From Erythrobasidium yunnanense (Eukaryota > Basidiomycota > Cystobasidiomycetes > Erythrobasidiales > Erythrobasidiaceae): a DNA stretch of 64,000 nucleotides. Each line of letters opens with the position of its first letter. The first letter of the stretch is position 1. The stretch covers positions 248,001 to 312,000 of the forward strand of contig BCJC01000007.1 of assembly GCA_001600175.1 (NCBI GenBank), given 5' to 3'. Under the pieces are notes generated by a model, which saw only the letters and a list, made by a program, of their open reading frames with translations, was not told the DNA's origin and searched no databases. The position numbers and the translations under genes were made by a program. This document shows positions 42,975 to 49,214 of this stretch, in pieces.

Positions 42975-43796
42975 TCATACATATTCATAACTTGTCAATT
43001 CACATGCAGTGGCTTCCATGAGGGACTCCAAGCTGCTGTAAAGCGTGTACTTTCCTTGACAGCGGTCTTCCAGTGTCTTACGCCGTGCATACTCTGGATC
43101 AGCGCCTACTATGACTTCATAGCCCTTTGGTGGCTGTCCGTAGGGCATACCCCACGTTCCAAACTCGAGCAACGAGACCTGTCGGCGTATGCTCAGATCA
43201 GTCGGCCGCAATGATAGTCGGAGAAGGGTGATGAGACAACTTACGACGCATGGCGTATACTTATGGAACCAGAATACTACGATGTGGCTCTTCTCAAACC
43301 CGAACGTCTCCCACTTCGTAAGTGCTCTCTGCATGCCCCTGCTTTCCGCATCGAAGTTTGGATTGATGAGCACCGTATCGCACAGCTTCATGCCAGATCT
43401 GGTCTCCTTCTGAAGATATGAATGAAGTTCTCCACGCCAGTCGACATCACCTCCCATGCCGCCGGCTAGAAAGACGAGCTTCTGCGAGGGGTTTGAACGA
43501 TCGCGGTTCACAGGTCGTAGAGCCGGCAACATATTGTCCCTCTTGATGATTTCAGGGTATCGCATGGTGATGCGGCCCGTCTGACCAGCAGACGGAGTGC
43601 GCGAAAGGCTTAAATTCGAAGAGGAGCGGGACAGAGGGCCAGGTGGCTTGGGTCCTGTGTTGGTGCGAGACCATGCTTGTCGACTCGCTGAAACACGCCT
43701 TGGGAGGTGCGGTGGGCCTGACTGTCGCTCCTGGCGATCGGCACTAGAGCTAGACTCGGAGGGCTTGCTGGTCTTACGTTGGTGTTGGTAGCTCAT
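42975..43796 (-). CDS. nucleoside 2-deoxyribosyltransferase-like protein, paralog 1
   Basis: Exons in coding order: 43796-43245 and 43178-42975, giving 251 residues. A basic Ser/Arg-rich N-terminus (about 1-75) precedes a compact alpha/beta domain. That domain contains KLVFLAGGMG, DWRGELHSYL, VLINPNF, TKWETFGFEKSHIVVFWFH and VSLLEFGTWG, then EVIVGADPEY. The order FLAG / NP / WE / LLE-G / VG is that of the nucleoside 2-deoxyribosyltransferase-like family (PF15891-type). Glu189 in LLEFG matches the glutamate nucleophile of bacterial enzymes, so N-glycosidic chemistry is possible but untested. The 66-nt intron at 43244-43179 is 3n and stop-free; removing it gives PCVVSLLEFG, which fits the family and both paralogs. 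Two further paralogs lie within 5.5 kb. Confidence 0.75.
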   Translation of the reverse strand: MSYQHQRKTSKPSESSSSADRQERQSGPPHLPRRVSASRQAWSRTNTGPKPPGPLSRSSSNLSLSRTPSAGQTGRITMRYPEIIKRDNMLPALRPVNRDRSNPSQKLVFLAGGMGGDVDWRGELHSYLQKETRSGMKLCDTVLINPNFDAESRGMQRALTKWETFGFEKSHIVVFWFHKYTPCVVSCLITLLRLSLRPTDLSIRRQVSLLEFGTWGMPYGQPPKGYEVIVGADPEYARRKTLEDRCQGKYTLYSSLESLMEATACELTSYEYV

Positions 43797-44425
43797 GATT
43801 GATGAGAGAGTGCTGCTGATGAGTCAGGTTTAATATGTGCTTGTGCTGAGTAGAACAGAGAGAAAGAGAGCAGCTCCTGCCTGGCAGCGTGGTACACCCT
43901 GAGCCTGAGTAAAGCTCCTTTGCAATCAGACAGACCTTTGAGCTTATCAGTGGAGACTCGCCGGGCGGTCAAGCGCCGGCCAAAAGGCATTGTAGGGGGT
44001 TGAAAAGGGGAAGTTCAGGTAAAAACCGAGAGCCTGAGCGGAATTTAAGCTGGAGAGGAACTCAGCCAGCTCAAGCAAGGGTCCCTAAGCTTCCAAACAG
44101 AGTGGGGGAACACTCAAAAGCCGGCTCGCAAATCCGAGGGTTGAACGAGTCTGGCCAGAGCCAGCTTGTGCTTGTCGTGGGACAGCCTGCTTATGAACTG
44201 TCCGTAGGGAAGACGAGGATAGGGCCTAGACCGTGCGAATGCGAGACAATGGCTCGTAACAGCCTGAGTCACGCTATAAAGGTATGTCAGACGTTTCGAC
44301 GCTGTGTCAGTTTAGGTTAGGTGGGTGAAGGGAAGGAGGCGTGTTGCCGCTTAGAGGCCAGTCACACTTTCAGACTGCGGACAGTCTGTTTCAATACAGT
44401 ATAGCCGAACACTGCAGTCCTTCCA
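43797..44425 (-). promoter_or_regulatory. upstream region of paralog 1 with two TGAGTCA sites
   Basis: 629 bp between paralogs 1 and 2, both on the minus strand. TGAGTCA, the bZIP (Gcn4/AP-1) core, occurs on the + strand at 43820-43826 (24 bp before the paralog 1 start) and 44265-44271. A frame at 44000-44320 is Arg/Gly/Pro-rich and lacks motifs; no gene is called. Confidence 0.45.
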
Positions 44426-45237
44426 TCACATAGTCCGGAGGCCGTCTGCGGCTGCTTGCGTAAGTGCTTCTACGGTATCATAGAGCTTGTGCCTGCCTGC
44501 GCAGTATGTGGCCAAAGTGGCACGCCGTTCGTATTCTGGGTCGGCTCCTACCAGTACTTGATACTTGCCTTTTGGACGCTGAGCTTGTGGCACGGCCCAC
44601 TGTCCGAACTCGAGAAGAGATATCTACGCAGTATTAGTGTCAGTCTTGCTCAAGCTGTGAGAGCGATGTGTATGCAGAAACTTACCATGCATGGAGAATG
44701 TTTATGGAAGAAGAACACAATCAGATCGCTCTTTGCAAAGTGATCAATCTCCCAATTTGTAAGCTGCTCGGACATATCCAGCCCTTTGACCTTCTTGAAG
44801 TACGGGTTCATCAGGACGACATCTGGCAGGCCAGGGCAGTTAGTCAGATCCTGCAGCAGGGTAGTTCGCCAGGGTACAGTATCTGCAGGAGCTCCGATGC
44901 CGCCTGCTAGAAAGACGAGCTTTTGATTGGTAGATTGTCGATTGACAGGCTTGAGAGTCTTTGAGGGTAGATCGAGCTCAGGGAAGCGCATGGTAACTTT
45001 ATAATGAGCTAGAGCACTATTTGAAGAAGTGCGGGAAAGACTGAGACTAGCGCGAGGAGATCTTGTTACGCCTAGACTGGCTCTAGATGTAGCTCTGGAA
45101 GCGCGTCGAGATCGATGCTGCTGAAGTCGTTTCATACGTTCCTCTGTAGTTTGCGGAGGCTGCGAGGCGGGATCATCGGTCGAACTGACGCTGTTGCGCT
45201 TGAGGGAGCCCATGCTGGGTTTGCGAGGTGCAGACAT
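44426..45237 (-). CDS. nucleoside 2-deoxyribosyltransferase-like protein, paralog 2
   Basis: Exons in coding order: 45237-44686 and 44623-44426, giving 249 residues. The layout is the same as paralog 1, and the first exon has the same length (552 nt) with its intron at the same codon. Blocks: KLVFLAGGIGA, VPWRTTLLQDL, VVLMNPYF, NWEIDHFAKSDLIVFFFHK, HSPCMISLLEFGQWAVP and YQVLVGADPEYERR. The candidate nucleophile is Glu189 in LLEFG. The N-terminus is Arg/Ser-rich (RSRRASRATSRASLG) and may be a targeting or phosphorylated tail. An in-frame upstream extension to 45300 exists; 45237 is chosen because it is an ATG giving an N-terminus like that of paralog 1. The gene is divergent from the Zn2Cys6 regulator. 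Confidence 0.78.
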
Positions 45238-45757
45238 GGCACTTTGGATGTTTGGGGAATCGCGTCTTCTGTGAGTGATTTGTTCACTTGTCGTAAGCAA
45301 AGAGAGCTACGTCCATGCAGCGACCGGAGTTTGCAGCATCCTGTGGTCTAACTGGGAACACAGCCATGACGGCTCTTAACGTGAGTCATCAAAGGGACTC
45401 CGCGATTGGGAGGCAGAAAACGCTTTTGAGCTTCAGTGAGCTTGCACTATGCTTCTCCAGCCAAGAGCATCGCAGAGTCCGAGCCGCTTCGATAATGAGA
45501 CGGCAGGCAGGAGGAAGTTTTTGGAAGCCAGCATTCGCAACGACGACATGCGACTTGAATATGAGGATACTACGATGTTCTACGGTCGCTGCGCCGGTCT
45601 TTGTACTTGAAGATATCGACGGGCCATATTGCATTGCGGGCTTTCTTCAGATCGATTCGAGATTCGCTGGGATAGACGATAGCGACTAGCGACATAACAG
45701 TCACTGGCATCACCAAACTCGTCAGGTTCGTTCTCTGGTGCAAGAGAGTTGCAATCC
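45238..45757. promoter_or_regulatory. bidirectional promoter of paralog 2 and the Zn2Cys6 factor
   Basis: 520 bp between divergent starts. A TGAGTCAT word (bZIP core plus one base) lies at 45382-45389. A frame at 45315-45689 reads open but matches nothing. Confidence 0.5.
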
Positions 45758-48208
45758 ATGCAGTCGGGAGAACGACAAGAGTCGCTTGACCGAGCGCCCA
45801 CAATCGACAGTGAAGATGGCCAAGAACCGCAGAAGAAGAAACAACGTCGCAGTAAAGCAGGCTGCTTAACATGCCGGTGCGCTGTCATGCCTCTGTCGAC
45901 AGTCCCGAACAAAATCTGACCACGTTGATGCATGACACAGAACCTCGAGAAAAGGCTGCGATGAGGCTAAACCACGATGCGGACGCTGCACTCGCCTATC
46001 TTATACGTGTATTTGGCCTGAACCACGCGAGGTGCACCCGTCTCCGAAAAGTCGAATCTCCAAAGAACGCCTGGAAGCAGCCGAGAGAGGGAATCAATTC
46101 TATACGGAAAATCGAGACTTTATAGCTCAAAGCCGAATGTACAGTTCGCCCAGTACATCTTCCTCGGCCCCTGCGACATCTGTCGTTGCCAATGCTTCCG
46201 GAAGAGGGACAGTAATGCCTGCAATAAACCCCGCTCCGCTGTTCCAATCGATACACAATGGTACCAACGTCCTACATAACCCATATGTCGCTCCCTATTC
46301 TGCTCCTCACGATACCGGTAACAGAAGCATCGGGATTCCCGACTCCCTCGTTCGCTCGTTTCCACCTCCGCCAAGTCCAGCATCGCAGCCGGGATCTTCT
46401 GCTCCGAGCTTCAATAGTAGCAACAATGCATTTAGATCAGACGCTATCATGCCTTTTGCAACAGAGTCGCCGTCTAGTGCCATGTCGGCGAACTTCTGGG
46501 ATGATCATCAGCTATACGGATTAGACTACGATTATCGCGAACTAGACTCATTATTGGCACTACTGGGACAGACCACGTCTACATCAGCAGGTACCTCATC
46601 AGATCTACTGTCCGGCACTTCTACATCTTTTGCCGGCCTGACCGGGCAAGCCCAGCACCACTTATTGCCAAATTCGCATCTACAAGACATACGGGATCGG
46701 AATGGTCATAGTCCGCAAAGATCGCAGCCCAGACAAGATCAGCTTGTCCTGCCAAGGGATAAATTGAAAGCGATGTCCAAGTTCATCCCGAAGCGTTGTT
46801 ATGCATTCCTAGAACGCATGATCGAAGAGCAGGATAACGGCAAGGGTGAAGCAACTCTTCCAATTGCCTGTGAGTATATTGTCGCCAAGGTCACATGAAC
46901 AATCTACTGAATTCGACCTCGCGCAGACCTCATCAACCTAGCAATGTGGACACCGCCTACCATCATTGAGGACCTAGTCGCGCAAGCCAAAGAGATCTAT
47001 ATCCAGGGCTCGCCCCTTCGCCATTTCATCGAAGAAATCGATGAAGCCATCTGGCCCATCTTGCTGTCGAAACCTAAAAAAGCGGTAAAGCTGTCTATTA
47101 CGCTGGAACAAATAGTCAACCTGAAGGACGTCAGCTTTCACACGAAAATTTATGCGCTAATGGATATGGCCTACCACAAGGTAAGCTGCTCTGGAATTTC
47201 GACATTAAGGCTTCGTGTTGACAGTATATGCTGCGCAGCTCTACGTGGAAGGAGCTAGCGCGTTCTACACGGACCTTTCCAAGATTGCCGACTTCGTCAA
47301 GAAGTATTTCAAGAAGCCAAATCAAGTTATCGATCTCGCAAAATTGGCCAACAAGAAGGATTTTGGAATTGCGGTCTTTGTGTACGCCGATATATTGGCT
47401 TCTATAGCCCTCGGAAGACCTACCACGTTTCCCGTAACATACACACAAGATGTCAACGACCCCGAGCAGATGCGTGTACGTTCATGCTGATGTAACATGC
47501 GGTCGACATAGACTGATCAGCTGTTACAGTACGTCATCGGCATAGAGCATCTGCTGTGTATAGCTTCAGACATCGCGACGTTCAAGTTTGCACTAGACAG
47601 AGACTATACCAGCCGTATCGGGGATGGCAGCCTCAATTCGCTCTATAAAGCACAAGCCGATCGACTCCTTTGGCGGATCCGGACATCTACCTGCTGTCTG
47701 CCCTTCGAAGAGGAAGATGACAGCGTGCACTACCTCTCGCTTCTGGCCGCACAAGAGTTATACCGCCAGGCGATAATCATCCACTTCTACCAGAGCATAT
47801 ACAAATTGCCTAGCACCGATCCACGGCTTATAAAGTGCATGAAACAGATCATACGCCTCTGGAAGTCGACAATGGAGAGTAATGAAGAACCAGACATGCT
47901 GAAGATGTCAGCTACGTCTGGCGTCCCACTCTTCCTAGCTTGTACAGTCGCGCAGGAGAAGGAGGACATAGAGATTCTTAGAGAATATTACACGGATTCA
48001 GATTCGGATGGCGAATGCTCGGAGAAGGATCCGATTCACGAATTTGTCGAGTACTTCTGGAAAGAGCAGGAGAAGCTGGGTAGACCTCTGGATTGGGTGA
48101 GTGCTGTGAATGTTACCGAGCATAAGTTACTAGACCAGCTAATCACAATCGCAAATGTCTCCGCAGCGGGACTATGCTTCTGAGGAGAGAGGTCCAGCTT
48201 TCCCGTAA
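45758..48208 (+). CDS. Zn(II)2Cys6 transcription factor
   Basis: Exons 45758-45876, 45941-46869, 46927-47180, 47239-47475, 47530-48096 and 48167-48208 give 715 residues. The binuclear zinc cluster is assembled across the first intron: Cys36, 39, 46, 53, 56 and 63, spaced C-x2-C-x6-C-x6-C-x2-C-x6-C, preceded by a basic KKKQRRSK stretch. A low-complexity Ser/Pro region (about 90-280) separates it from an all-helical C-terminal region (about 300-715) resembling the Fungal_trans_2 type, with LPRDKLKAMSKFIPKRCYAF, YALMDMAYHK and ILASIALGRP. It is expected to bind CGG-type sites in the nucleus. Its place between deoxyribosyltransferase-like paralogs 2 and 3, divergent from one and upstream of the other, suggests a local regulator; that is inference. 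Confidence 0.88.
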
Positions 48209-48511
48209 TCTATCACCGCTTGGCTACAACAATGCACTATCTTTATTGCGCGCTTTTAAGGACCTGCTTTGGAAGATATCCGCCGTCCGGAAGCAGTCCA
48301 GCATAACTCCTTTCATTGAACTGTGTGGAACCAAGACCACGACAGGCGCGACCTGTTAACAGGTGTTTCATGGACGACAAGTACTCAGCGATCCTCGGAT
48401 CCATACCTGTTCGCAATAGACTGATACTCTGGTCATTGACATACAACGATCAAATCGGCACCAGCACATCAACAGAATCATCATTCCGACGGCCAGGCAG
48501 ATTGATCGACT
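48209..48511. other. intergenic region upstream of paralog 3
   Basis: 303 bp between the Zn2Cys6 gene and paralog 3 on the same strand. Apart from the 14-bp palindrome listed separately, nothing distinctive was seen. Confidence 0.5.
48351..48364. promoter_or_regulatory. 14-bp perfect palindrome upstream of paralog 3
   Basis: ACCTGTTAACAGGT is its own reverse complement. It lies about 150 bp before the paralog 3 start codon, where a dimeric regulator could bind. A role is inference only. Confidence 0.35.
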
Positions 48512-49214
48512 ATGTCTGCAGCCTCCGGACCAACACAAAGAGGGACTGGAAAAGGCGTGCGCCGGCAGCTCAAGCGTCCCCTGCGGGCTATCGTCAAAGT
48601 CCGAGCAAGCCTACCTAGACAATTGCCATCGTATGGGTCTTCGCCACTCGTGCGAACACAAGTACGAAGATATTATGCCGAGCCCGACGCCTCTGGAAAA
48701 GCGTTTATGCCAGTCAACCTCAAGCCTGGTGAAAAGCTTGTTTTCCTAGCGGGCGGCGTCTATGACGACGCTGATTGGAGAGGCATATTACAAGCTGCTC
48801 TATCGAACGGGCCGGCTCTGCCTGCCCTGGCGCTCATCACACCGGTGGGCAGCCCATCGCCCGGAATGCTTGGTCCGCGAGCCCTGCTGCTCAGATGGCA
48901 AATCTCACATTTTGGCAGAAGCCATCTCGTGATATTTTGGTTTCATCGCTTCACCGGATGTCCTGTATGCCAAGCGTGTGATTTCTATCGCGACCGTGCT
49001 CACGATAGGTCCACAGGGCACGCTCTTAGAGTTCGGGCAGTGGGCTGTGCCCATGGCCAAGAAAGCTAAAGGGCGATATAAAGTCGTCGTTGGAGCTGAT
49101 CCGCAGTACGAGAAACGACAACATCTGATTGTCCATTGCGAGGGGAAGTACAAGCTGCACGATAGTCTCGAGTCACTGGCTCAAGCGGCCGCCGACGAGC
49201 TTCGTGCGATGTGA
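48512..49214 (+). CDS. nucleoside 2-deoxyribosyltransferase-like protein, paralog 3
   Basis: Exons 48512-48964 and 49017-49214 give 216 residues. It shares the blocks of the two paralogs upstream: KLVFLAGGVYDDADWRG, a region ending ALITPVG, RWQISHFGRSHLVIFWFHR, TLLEFGQWAVP, YKVVVGADPQYEKR and a final LESLAQAAADELRAM. The intron lies at the same place as in paralogs 1 and 2. The candidate catalytic Glu156 in LLEFG is kept. Differences: the usual Asn-Pro is Thr-Pro, the WE pair is WQ, and the N-terminal tail is shorter and basic. It is the most diverged of the three and lies on the opposite strand, downstream of the Zn2Cys6 factor. Confidence 0.75.

What the first reader, a model, noticed from the sequence alone, without database searches (positions are those of the whole stretch)
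42975..49214. Cluster of three deoxyribosyltransferase-like paralogs around one Zn(II)2Cys6 regulator
Within 6.2 kb, three homologous genes share an intron at the same codon, a FLAGG start, a (K/R)SH/D-aliphatic-V/I-F-W/F-FH block and LLEFG with a candidate catalytic glutamate. They surround a zinc-cluster factor that is divergent from one and upstream of another. Fungal PF15891-type proteins have no established role that I know of, so a locally amplified set beside a regulator looks like a dedicated nucleoside- or base-modifying or defence system.
Basis: partly seen in the sequence, partly recalled or inferred. Interest (0 to 1): 0.8.

Follow-up and report, generated by a model that had tools for sequence, protein, structure and literature searches.

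The report
Fungal cluster of NDT-fold glycosidase paralogs
A fungus carries three neighbouring copies, and a fourth copy elsewhere with a stop codon in its reading frame, of a gene for a small enzyme that probably cuts the bond between a base and its sugar; in about a fifth of the cases checked, relatives of this enzyme in microbes and phages sit beside genes that make or recycle the coenzyme NAD, so its textbook name may point to the wrong substrate.

Summary
Three paralogs (A, B on minus; C on plus) related to Pfam PF15891 lie at 42975-49214 around a real Zn2Cys6 gene. All three carry a phase-0 intron at the same codon, as does a fourth paralog on another contig, which has an in-frame stop. 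Structure models match the only PF15891 structure found (4MCJ), then YtoQ, human DNPH1, MilB and 2'-deoxyribosyltransferases, so the NDT-like fold and the LLEFG glutamate are supported. The 'dedicated system' reading is not: no zinc-cluster site is shared by the promoters, and no domain match to such a regulator was found in the 3.2 kb read around the fourth copy. The new lead is the family's context: 26 of 118 dereplicated prokaryote and viral loci have a NAD-metabolism gene within three genes. One phage has the gene last in a run of NAD-salvage genes; another fuses it to an ADP-ribosyltransferase. The family has Phe where deoxyribo-specific enzymes have Tyr, a change linked in print to ribo-substrates. 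Best reading: a divergent, tandemly amplified fungal branch of a ribosyl N-glycosidase family, part of whose prokaryotic kin serve NAD salvage. Fungal substrate unproven; its 'NPRR' motif is lost.

The parts
42975..43796 (-). Paralog A, PF15891, 251 aa spliced; intron 43244-43179
43179..43244 (-). Phase-0 intron of A, 66 nt, no stop in frame
44426..45237 (-). Paralog B, PF15891, 249 aa spliced; intron 44685-44624
44624..44685 (-). Phase-0 intron of B, 62 nt, same codon as in A
45758..48207 (+). Zn2Cys6 / Fungal_trans_2 regulator gene, six exons, about 715 aa; neighbour, link to A-C not shown
48512..49214 (+). Paralog C, PF15891 below the cut-off, 216 aa spliced; intron 48965-49016
48965..49016 (+). 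Phase-0 intron of C, 52 nt, same codon as in A and B

Best explanation
A, B and C are a fungal, locally amplified branch of the PF15891 family: single-domain N-glycosidases of the NDT/DNPH1 fold behind a Ser/Arg-rich tail that the model leaves without structure. The LLEFG glutamate attacks C1' of a ribosyl N-glycoside, the base leaves, and water (or another base) resolves the glycosyl-enzyme. The Phe of FLAGG, where 2'-deoxyribosyltransferases have Tyr, favours ribo- over deoxyribo-substrates. In prokaryotes and phages a sizeable minority of the family sits with NAD genes, so the ancestral substrate may be an NAD precursor or breakdown product (nicotinamide or nicotinate ribonucleotide or riboside). 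The fungal branch has lost the NPRR motif and so probably has a changed substrate. Shown: fold (by model), paralogy, shared intron, context of kin. Inferred: catalysis, ribo preference, substrate. The Zn2Cys6 gene is most likely an incidental neighbour.
Against: 92 of 118 loci show no such gene within three genes, and the viral rate at 7-9 genes (7 of 288) is not far below that at 1-3 (16 of 355). 6 of 9 phage regions read, of 34 records found, show no annotated NAD gene. None of the 11 other window frames scanned is NAD-related; 7 of them got a name. The four fungal copies lack NPRR; C has Gln and the A-relative P0002 has Lys at the second acid. A Y7F/D72N change in LlNDT-2 gave poorer catalysis than wild type (passages of PMC11647913). 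The fungal stem is long (1.76 changes per site). The Phe is partly built in, because loci were fetched by FLAGG-containing patterns. The NAD families were chosen after seeing the neighbours.
Confidence: 0.45

Rival explanations
1. A DNPH1-like pool-cleaning set: the paralogs hydrolyse odd (deoxy)nucleoside monophosphates, each with its own base, without any NAD link.
For: Same fold as DNPH1 and MilB. D92 of LlNDT, six before the nucleophile, binds the 5'-OH (passage); six before the Glu A-D have Cys, which could leave room for a 5'-phosphate; that equivalence is by spacing only.
Against: Phe in place of Tyr speaks against deoxy-substrates; kin are enriched beside NAD genes while PF05014 in the same genomes is not.
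Confidence: 0.25
2. Sensors or decaying copies: after losing pocket residues the fungal proteins bind a nucleotide but no longer cut it, and some copies are on the way out.
For: NPRR lost in all four; second acid lost in C and in P0002; D has an in-frame stop.
Against: Nucleophile Glu kept in all four; B is 76% identical over 86% of its length to a relative, and exon 2 of A is 64 of 67 identical to that of P0002, so sequence is held.
Confidence: 0.2
3. One reading: a dedicated nucleoside- or base-modifying or defence cassette under the Zn2Cys6 factor.
For: Compact placement; DrHyd-type enzymes act on NAD in immunity (passages of PMC9503650).
Against: No shared site; D lies apart from the cluster with no zinc-cluster match in its 3.2-kb locus; no PADLOC match.
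Confidence: 0.07

Closest known systems
PF15891 Nuc_deoxyri_tr2; the one structure found is 4MCJ (Parabacteroides distasonis)
   Same: Fold, FLAGG-type first strand, W-E, E-x-G, G-x-D-x-x-Y-x-R
   Different: NPRR and the D and Q that follow Y-x-R-R are replaced in the fungal copies; Ser/Arg-rich tail and introns added
PF05014 enzymes: 2'-deoxyribosyltransferases (CtNDT, TbNDT), DNPH1, MilB
   Same: Fold; spacing of the two catalytic acids as in CtNDT
   Different: PF05014 does not match A-C at E up to 1; Phe instead of Tyr in the first strand motif; second acid Glu instead of Asp. That these enzymes are PF05014 is stated for NDTs and (d)NMP glycosidases in passages of PMC7308715
AvNRT, N-ribosyltransferase of Archaeoglobus veneficus
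   Same: Phe at position 7 and ribo-substrate preference (passages)
   Different: Described there as a third type of NDT; PF15891 does not appear in the passages read
DrHyd superfamily NADases and ADP-ribosyl cyclases
   Same: N-glycosidase chemistry on NAD; NDTs and ADP-ribosyl cyclases share a Pfam clan. That NDTs belong to DrHyd is recalled, from no call
   Different: That survey says viruses carry only cyclase-type DrHyd domains; PF15891 genes beside phage NAD genes are not in the passages read

Membership tests
PF15891 (Nuc_deoxyri_tr2) | Score over Pfam's cut-off of 30 bits | tested here: met
   A 38.2 and B 42.6 bits; C only 23.1, below; D exon 25.2, below. C and D join by paralogy
PF15891 (Nuc_deoxyri_tr2) | Fold of 4MCJ | tested here: met
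PF15891 (Nuc_deoxyri_tr2) | NPRR motif (the two R in 117 and 110 of 118 loci) | tested here: not met
   A NPNF, B NPYF, C TPVG, D RPKL; sequence-profile membership still holds for A and B
PF05014 2'-deoxyribosyltransferase | PF05014 match and Tyr in the first motif | tested here: not met
   No PF05014 match of A-C at E up to 1; Phe in A-D
PF05014 2'-deoxyribosyltransferase | Glu nucleophile | tested here: met
   By alignment and spacing only
NAD salvage enzyme | Gene context with NAD genes | tested here: inconclusive
   Seen at 26 of 118 prokaryote or viral loci; not seen among the fungal window frames scanned
NAD salvage enzyme | Activity on a nicotinamide riboside or ribotide | not testable with these tools
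   Needs an assay
Anti-phage or antiviral defence system | Match to a described defence family | tested here: not met
   No PADLOC hit for 3 of 3 proteins, B core and two relatives; the library holds anti-phage systems only

The most novel reading that the evidence does not exclude
PF15891 is a misnamed family of NAD-cycle ribosyl N-glycosidases (or transglycosidases) used by archaea, bacteria and phages beside NAD salvage genes, and fungi have turned it into an amplified, fast-changing set of NAD- or nucleotide-cutting enzymes with new specificity, possibly for signalling or defence as TIR enzymes do.
Probability: 0.12. Interest if true: 0.8.

Novelty: new variant of a known kind. Interest (0 to 1): 0.5.

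Why it matters
PF15891 carries a name taken from deoxyribosyltransferases; one structure turned up, and no paper for the accession, the short name or that structure was found in the held library. Its repeated place beside NAD salvage genes of archaea, bacteria and phages gives a concrete substrate list to assay, and adds a possible NAD-cycle enzyme to phage and host NAD conflict. The fungal copies then offer natural variants of the pocket.

Tried and rejected
A shared zinc-cluster site (CGG/CCG pairs, spacings 0-18, upstream of A, B/regulator, C and D): best sharing 2 of 4, reached by 140 of 200 shuffles, so rejected. NCBIfam and PADLOC: no hits; PHROGs gave only phrog_30579 of unknown function. 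Protein search with B alone found 2 relatives; with the alignment of A-D, 211, of which 120 were listed. Pfam scan of neighbours as a free count: near sample 150 of 578 gave NUDIX 4, AAA_28 3, NrtR winged helix 2, isochorismatase 2, CTP_transf_like 2, NAD_synthase 1; far sample 150 of 758 gave NAPRTase 1, NadA 1, NAD_kinase_C 1; only the top 25 of 88 and of 66 families are shown, so this is weak by itself. A first neighbour census lost 28 of 150 loci whose target was not called; redone with forced targets on 150 loci, 118 after dereplication at 70% identity and coverage. The PF05014 control: 18 matches in 49 genomes, 5 of them below Pfam's cut-off, and 1 of the 18 (L183) proved to be a PF15891 gene itself, so 17 are true controls. 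Motif counts for the D and Q after Y-x-R-R are misaligned and not used. A six-frame pattern scan for zinc clusters missed the known, intron-split one in the window, so its blank on L003 says nothing; Pfam on five frames of L003 was used instead. Zn2Cys6 gene density in this genome, and PF05014 in it, could not be counted because the machine was busy. Of 18 plasmid records with a relative one was read; it names no NAD gene nearby.

Full report
What is there. The three genes are real and correctly placed. A lies on the minus strand at 43796-42975, B on the minus strand at 45237-44426, C on the plus strand at 48512-49214; each has one short intron (66, 62, 52 nt), phase 0, at the same alignment column just before the LLEFG block. 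A fourth copy, D, lies on contig C2; it has two introns, the second at the same codon, and an in-frame TAG soon after the GADPEY block. Searching the 20.9-Mb genome with B at E up to 10 returned nine matches, all exons of these four genes; seven candidates were scored. The Zn2Cys6 gene between B and C is sound: six exons, 715 codons without a stop, zinc-cluster and Fungal_trans_2 domains.

Surroundings. Upstream lies a FIS1 gene, downstream an ABC transporter; also in the window are a decarboxylase of the ornithine/arginine type, a RabGAP, a BAR-domain, a PH-domain and a TM7S3/TM198-type protein. I scanned 11 window frames outside the cluster, of some 34 long ones listed; 7 got a name, none a NAD or nucleotide enzyme. 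D has an SRR1-domain neighbour, and no zinc-cluster match in five frames of its 3.2-kb locus.

Relatives in fungi. The closest proteins are unnamed metagenome predictions; I call them fungal because they group with A-D and two of them read through an insert where the introns lie. P0001 is the B ortholog and P0002 the A ortholog; P0003, P0004 and P0007 are further copies. P0003-P0005 share a longest contig of 12175 bases, and P0001 and P0007 one of 4693, which suggests clusters there too. The nine rows form one group with 100/100 support and a long stem; the bootstrap had not fully settled. So A and B are older than the split from that relative, and copy number seems to keep changing. Other fungal groups are not in the collections, so how the family entered fungi is open.

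Fold and active site. The relative P0008 gave pLDDT 94. Both match 4MCJ best, then YtoQ, DNPH1, MilB and deoxyribosyltransferases; TIR domains and, for the A model, Rab GTPases follow at lower Z. The two acids of P0008 (E69, E95) have the spacing of D62 and E88 in CtNDT (numbers from PDB titles), so LLEFG carries the expected nucleophile; this rests on alignment and spacing. The Phe of FLAGG falls where CtNDT has Tyr7, two before Ala9. A paper on AvNRT says that Phe or Tyr near the catalytic Glu is thought to divide NMP from dNMP glycosidases, and that Phe7 goes with ribonucleosides (passages of PMC7308715). Another shows that a Y7F/D72N change in LlNDT-2 gave poorer catalysis than wild type (passages of PMC11647913), so Phe alone is no proof. 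The fungal copies lost NPRR; C has Gln and P0002 has Lys at the second acid.

Family context. I fetched 70 prokaryote and 80 viral loci, called neighbours and clustered them. Twelve recurrent neighbour clusters that looked NAD-related were picked by eye and named by one representative each with Pfam: NUDIX, NAPRTase, NAMPT, isochorismatase, NAD synthase, NADAR, PRPP-synthetase-like, two CTP_transf_like, AAA_28, NMN transporter, ADP-ribosylglycohydrolase. 'Nicotinamidase', 'NMNAT', 'NadD' and 'NadR' are my reading of isochorismatase, CTP_transf_like and AAA_28. Leaving out NUDIX and PRPP synthetase, 26 of 118 dereplicated loci have such a gene within three genes (13 of 55 genome loci, 13 of 63 viral), and the rate per gene falls from 6.3% (40 of 639) to 2.6% (14 of 543), 2.4% (10 of 415) and 1.7% (5 of 301) with distance. 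Near against all farther genes gives Fisher p = 4e-5; genes of one locus are not independent, and the families were chosen after looking. As a control I took PF05014 in 49 of the same genomes: 18 have a match, 5 of them below the cut-off. Around these, 1 of 99 near genes is of this kind (1 locus), against 11 of 99 (6 loci) around PF15891 in the same 18 genomes; one of the 18 control matches is itself a PF15891 gene, leaving 17. On the tree the label needs at least 16 changes, so it recurs in many lines: several archaeal groups, Clostridiales, Lachnospiraceae, Deinococcales, Pirellulales, Saprospiraceae, a myxobacterial record and viral contigs. None of the loci titled as actinobacteria is among the 26.

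Phages. In Sinorhizobium phage Phosso the deposited names give, on one strand with unknown genes between, NAD synthetase, nicotinate phosphoribosyltransferase, a NUDIX enzyme, nicotinamide-nucleotide adenylyltransferase, a hydrolase (isochorismatase fold by Pfam), a 148-aa unknown, then PF15891. Tunturiibacter phage Tunturi_5 has PF15891 fused to an ADP-ribosyltransferase domain. Lactobacillus phage 3-521 has an NMN transporter about 4 kb away. The other six regions read, of 34 records found, show no annotated NAD gene, though many genes there are unnamed.

Prior work. No paper in the held library holds 'PF15891', 'Nuc_deoxyri_tr2' or '4MCJ', and none holds NADAR with nucleoside 2-deoxyribosyltransferase. 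The survey of NAD-ADPr systems in viruses (PMC9503650, passages) places DrHyd domains in NAD biology and says viral ones are only of cyclase type; that NDTs belong to DrHyd is recalled. The HEPN survey suggests deoxyribosyltransferase domains may attack DNA as toxins (passages of PMC3710099). A Lactobacillus phage paper mentions a deoxyribosyltransferase and, in the next sentence, a nicotinamide riboside transporter (passages of PMC6669764). The library lacks most subscription journals.

Judgement. The fungal locus is a genuine, divergent tandem set, not a demonstrated system. What it led to, a NAD context for a family without a tested function that I could find, is the part worth a bench test. 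Transfer of that function to the fungal branch is an inference across a long branch with altered pocket residues.

Noticed in passing
L003 about 1091-1980 (genome contig C2): Fourth paralog D has an in-frame TAG after ...GADPEYAKVQ, so it ends early or is decaying; an extra intron lies just after FLAGG.
   Followed up: partly
window 43179-43244 (-): The A intron is 66 nt, stop-free, and its reading is 21 of 22 identical to that of P0002, as well kept as exon 2 (64 of 67) and better than exon 1 (80 of 96); intron retention or a mosaic gene is possible. Protein sets favour open introns, so this is only a lead.
   Followed up: partly
L014 3959-7747 (phage Tunturi_5): 1262-aa protein annotated as MutT/NUDIX hydrolase; Pfam finds PF15891 and ART-PolyVal but no NUDIX at E up to 0.001.
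   Followed up: partly
L012 5552-5998 (phage Phosso): 148-aa protein without Pfam match sits between the isochorismatase-fold hydrolase and PF15891.
   Followed up: no
L025, L030, L032, L033, L040, L043, L044: Seven cyanobacterial PF15891 loci share an unnamed neighbour (169 aa in L033) one gene away, and six of them a gene on the other side that looks by eye like an esterase.
   Followed up: no
L024, L029, L031: Three archaeal loci share a neighbour that looks by eye like a Bud32-type kinase; not tested.
   Followed up: no
L020 7165-8001: Neighbour found in four archaeal loci, with a weak, below cut-off NAD kinase match.
   Followed up: no
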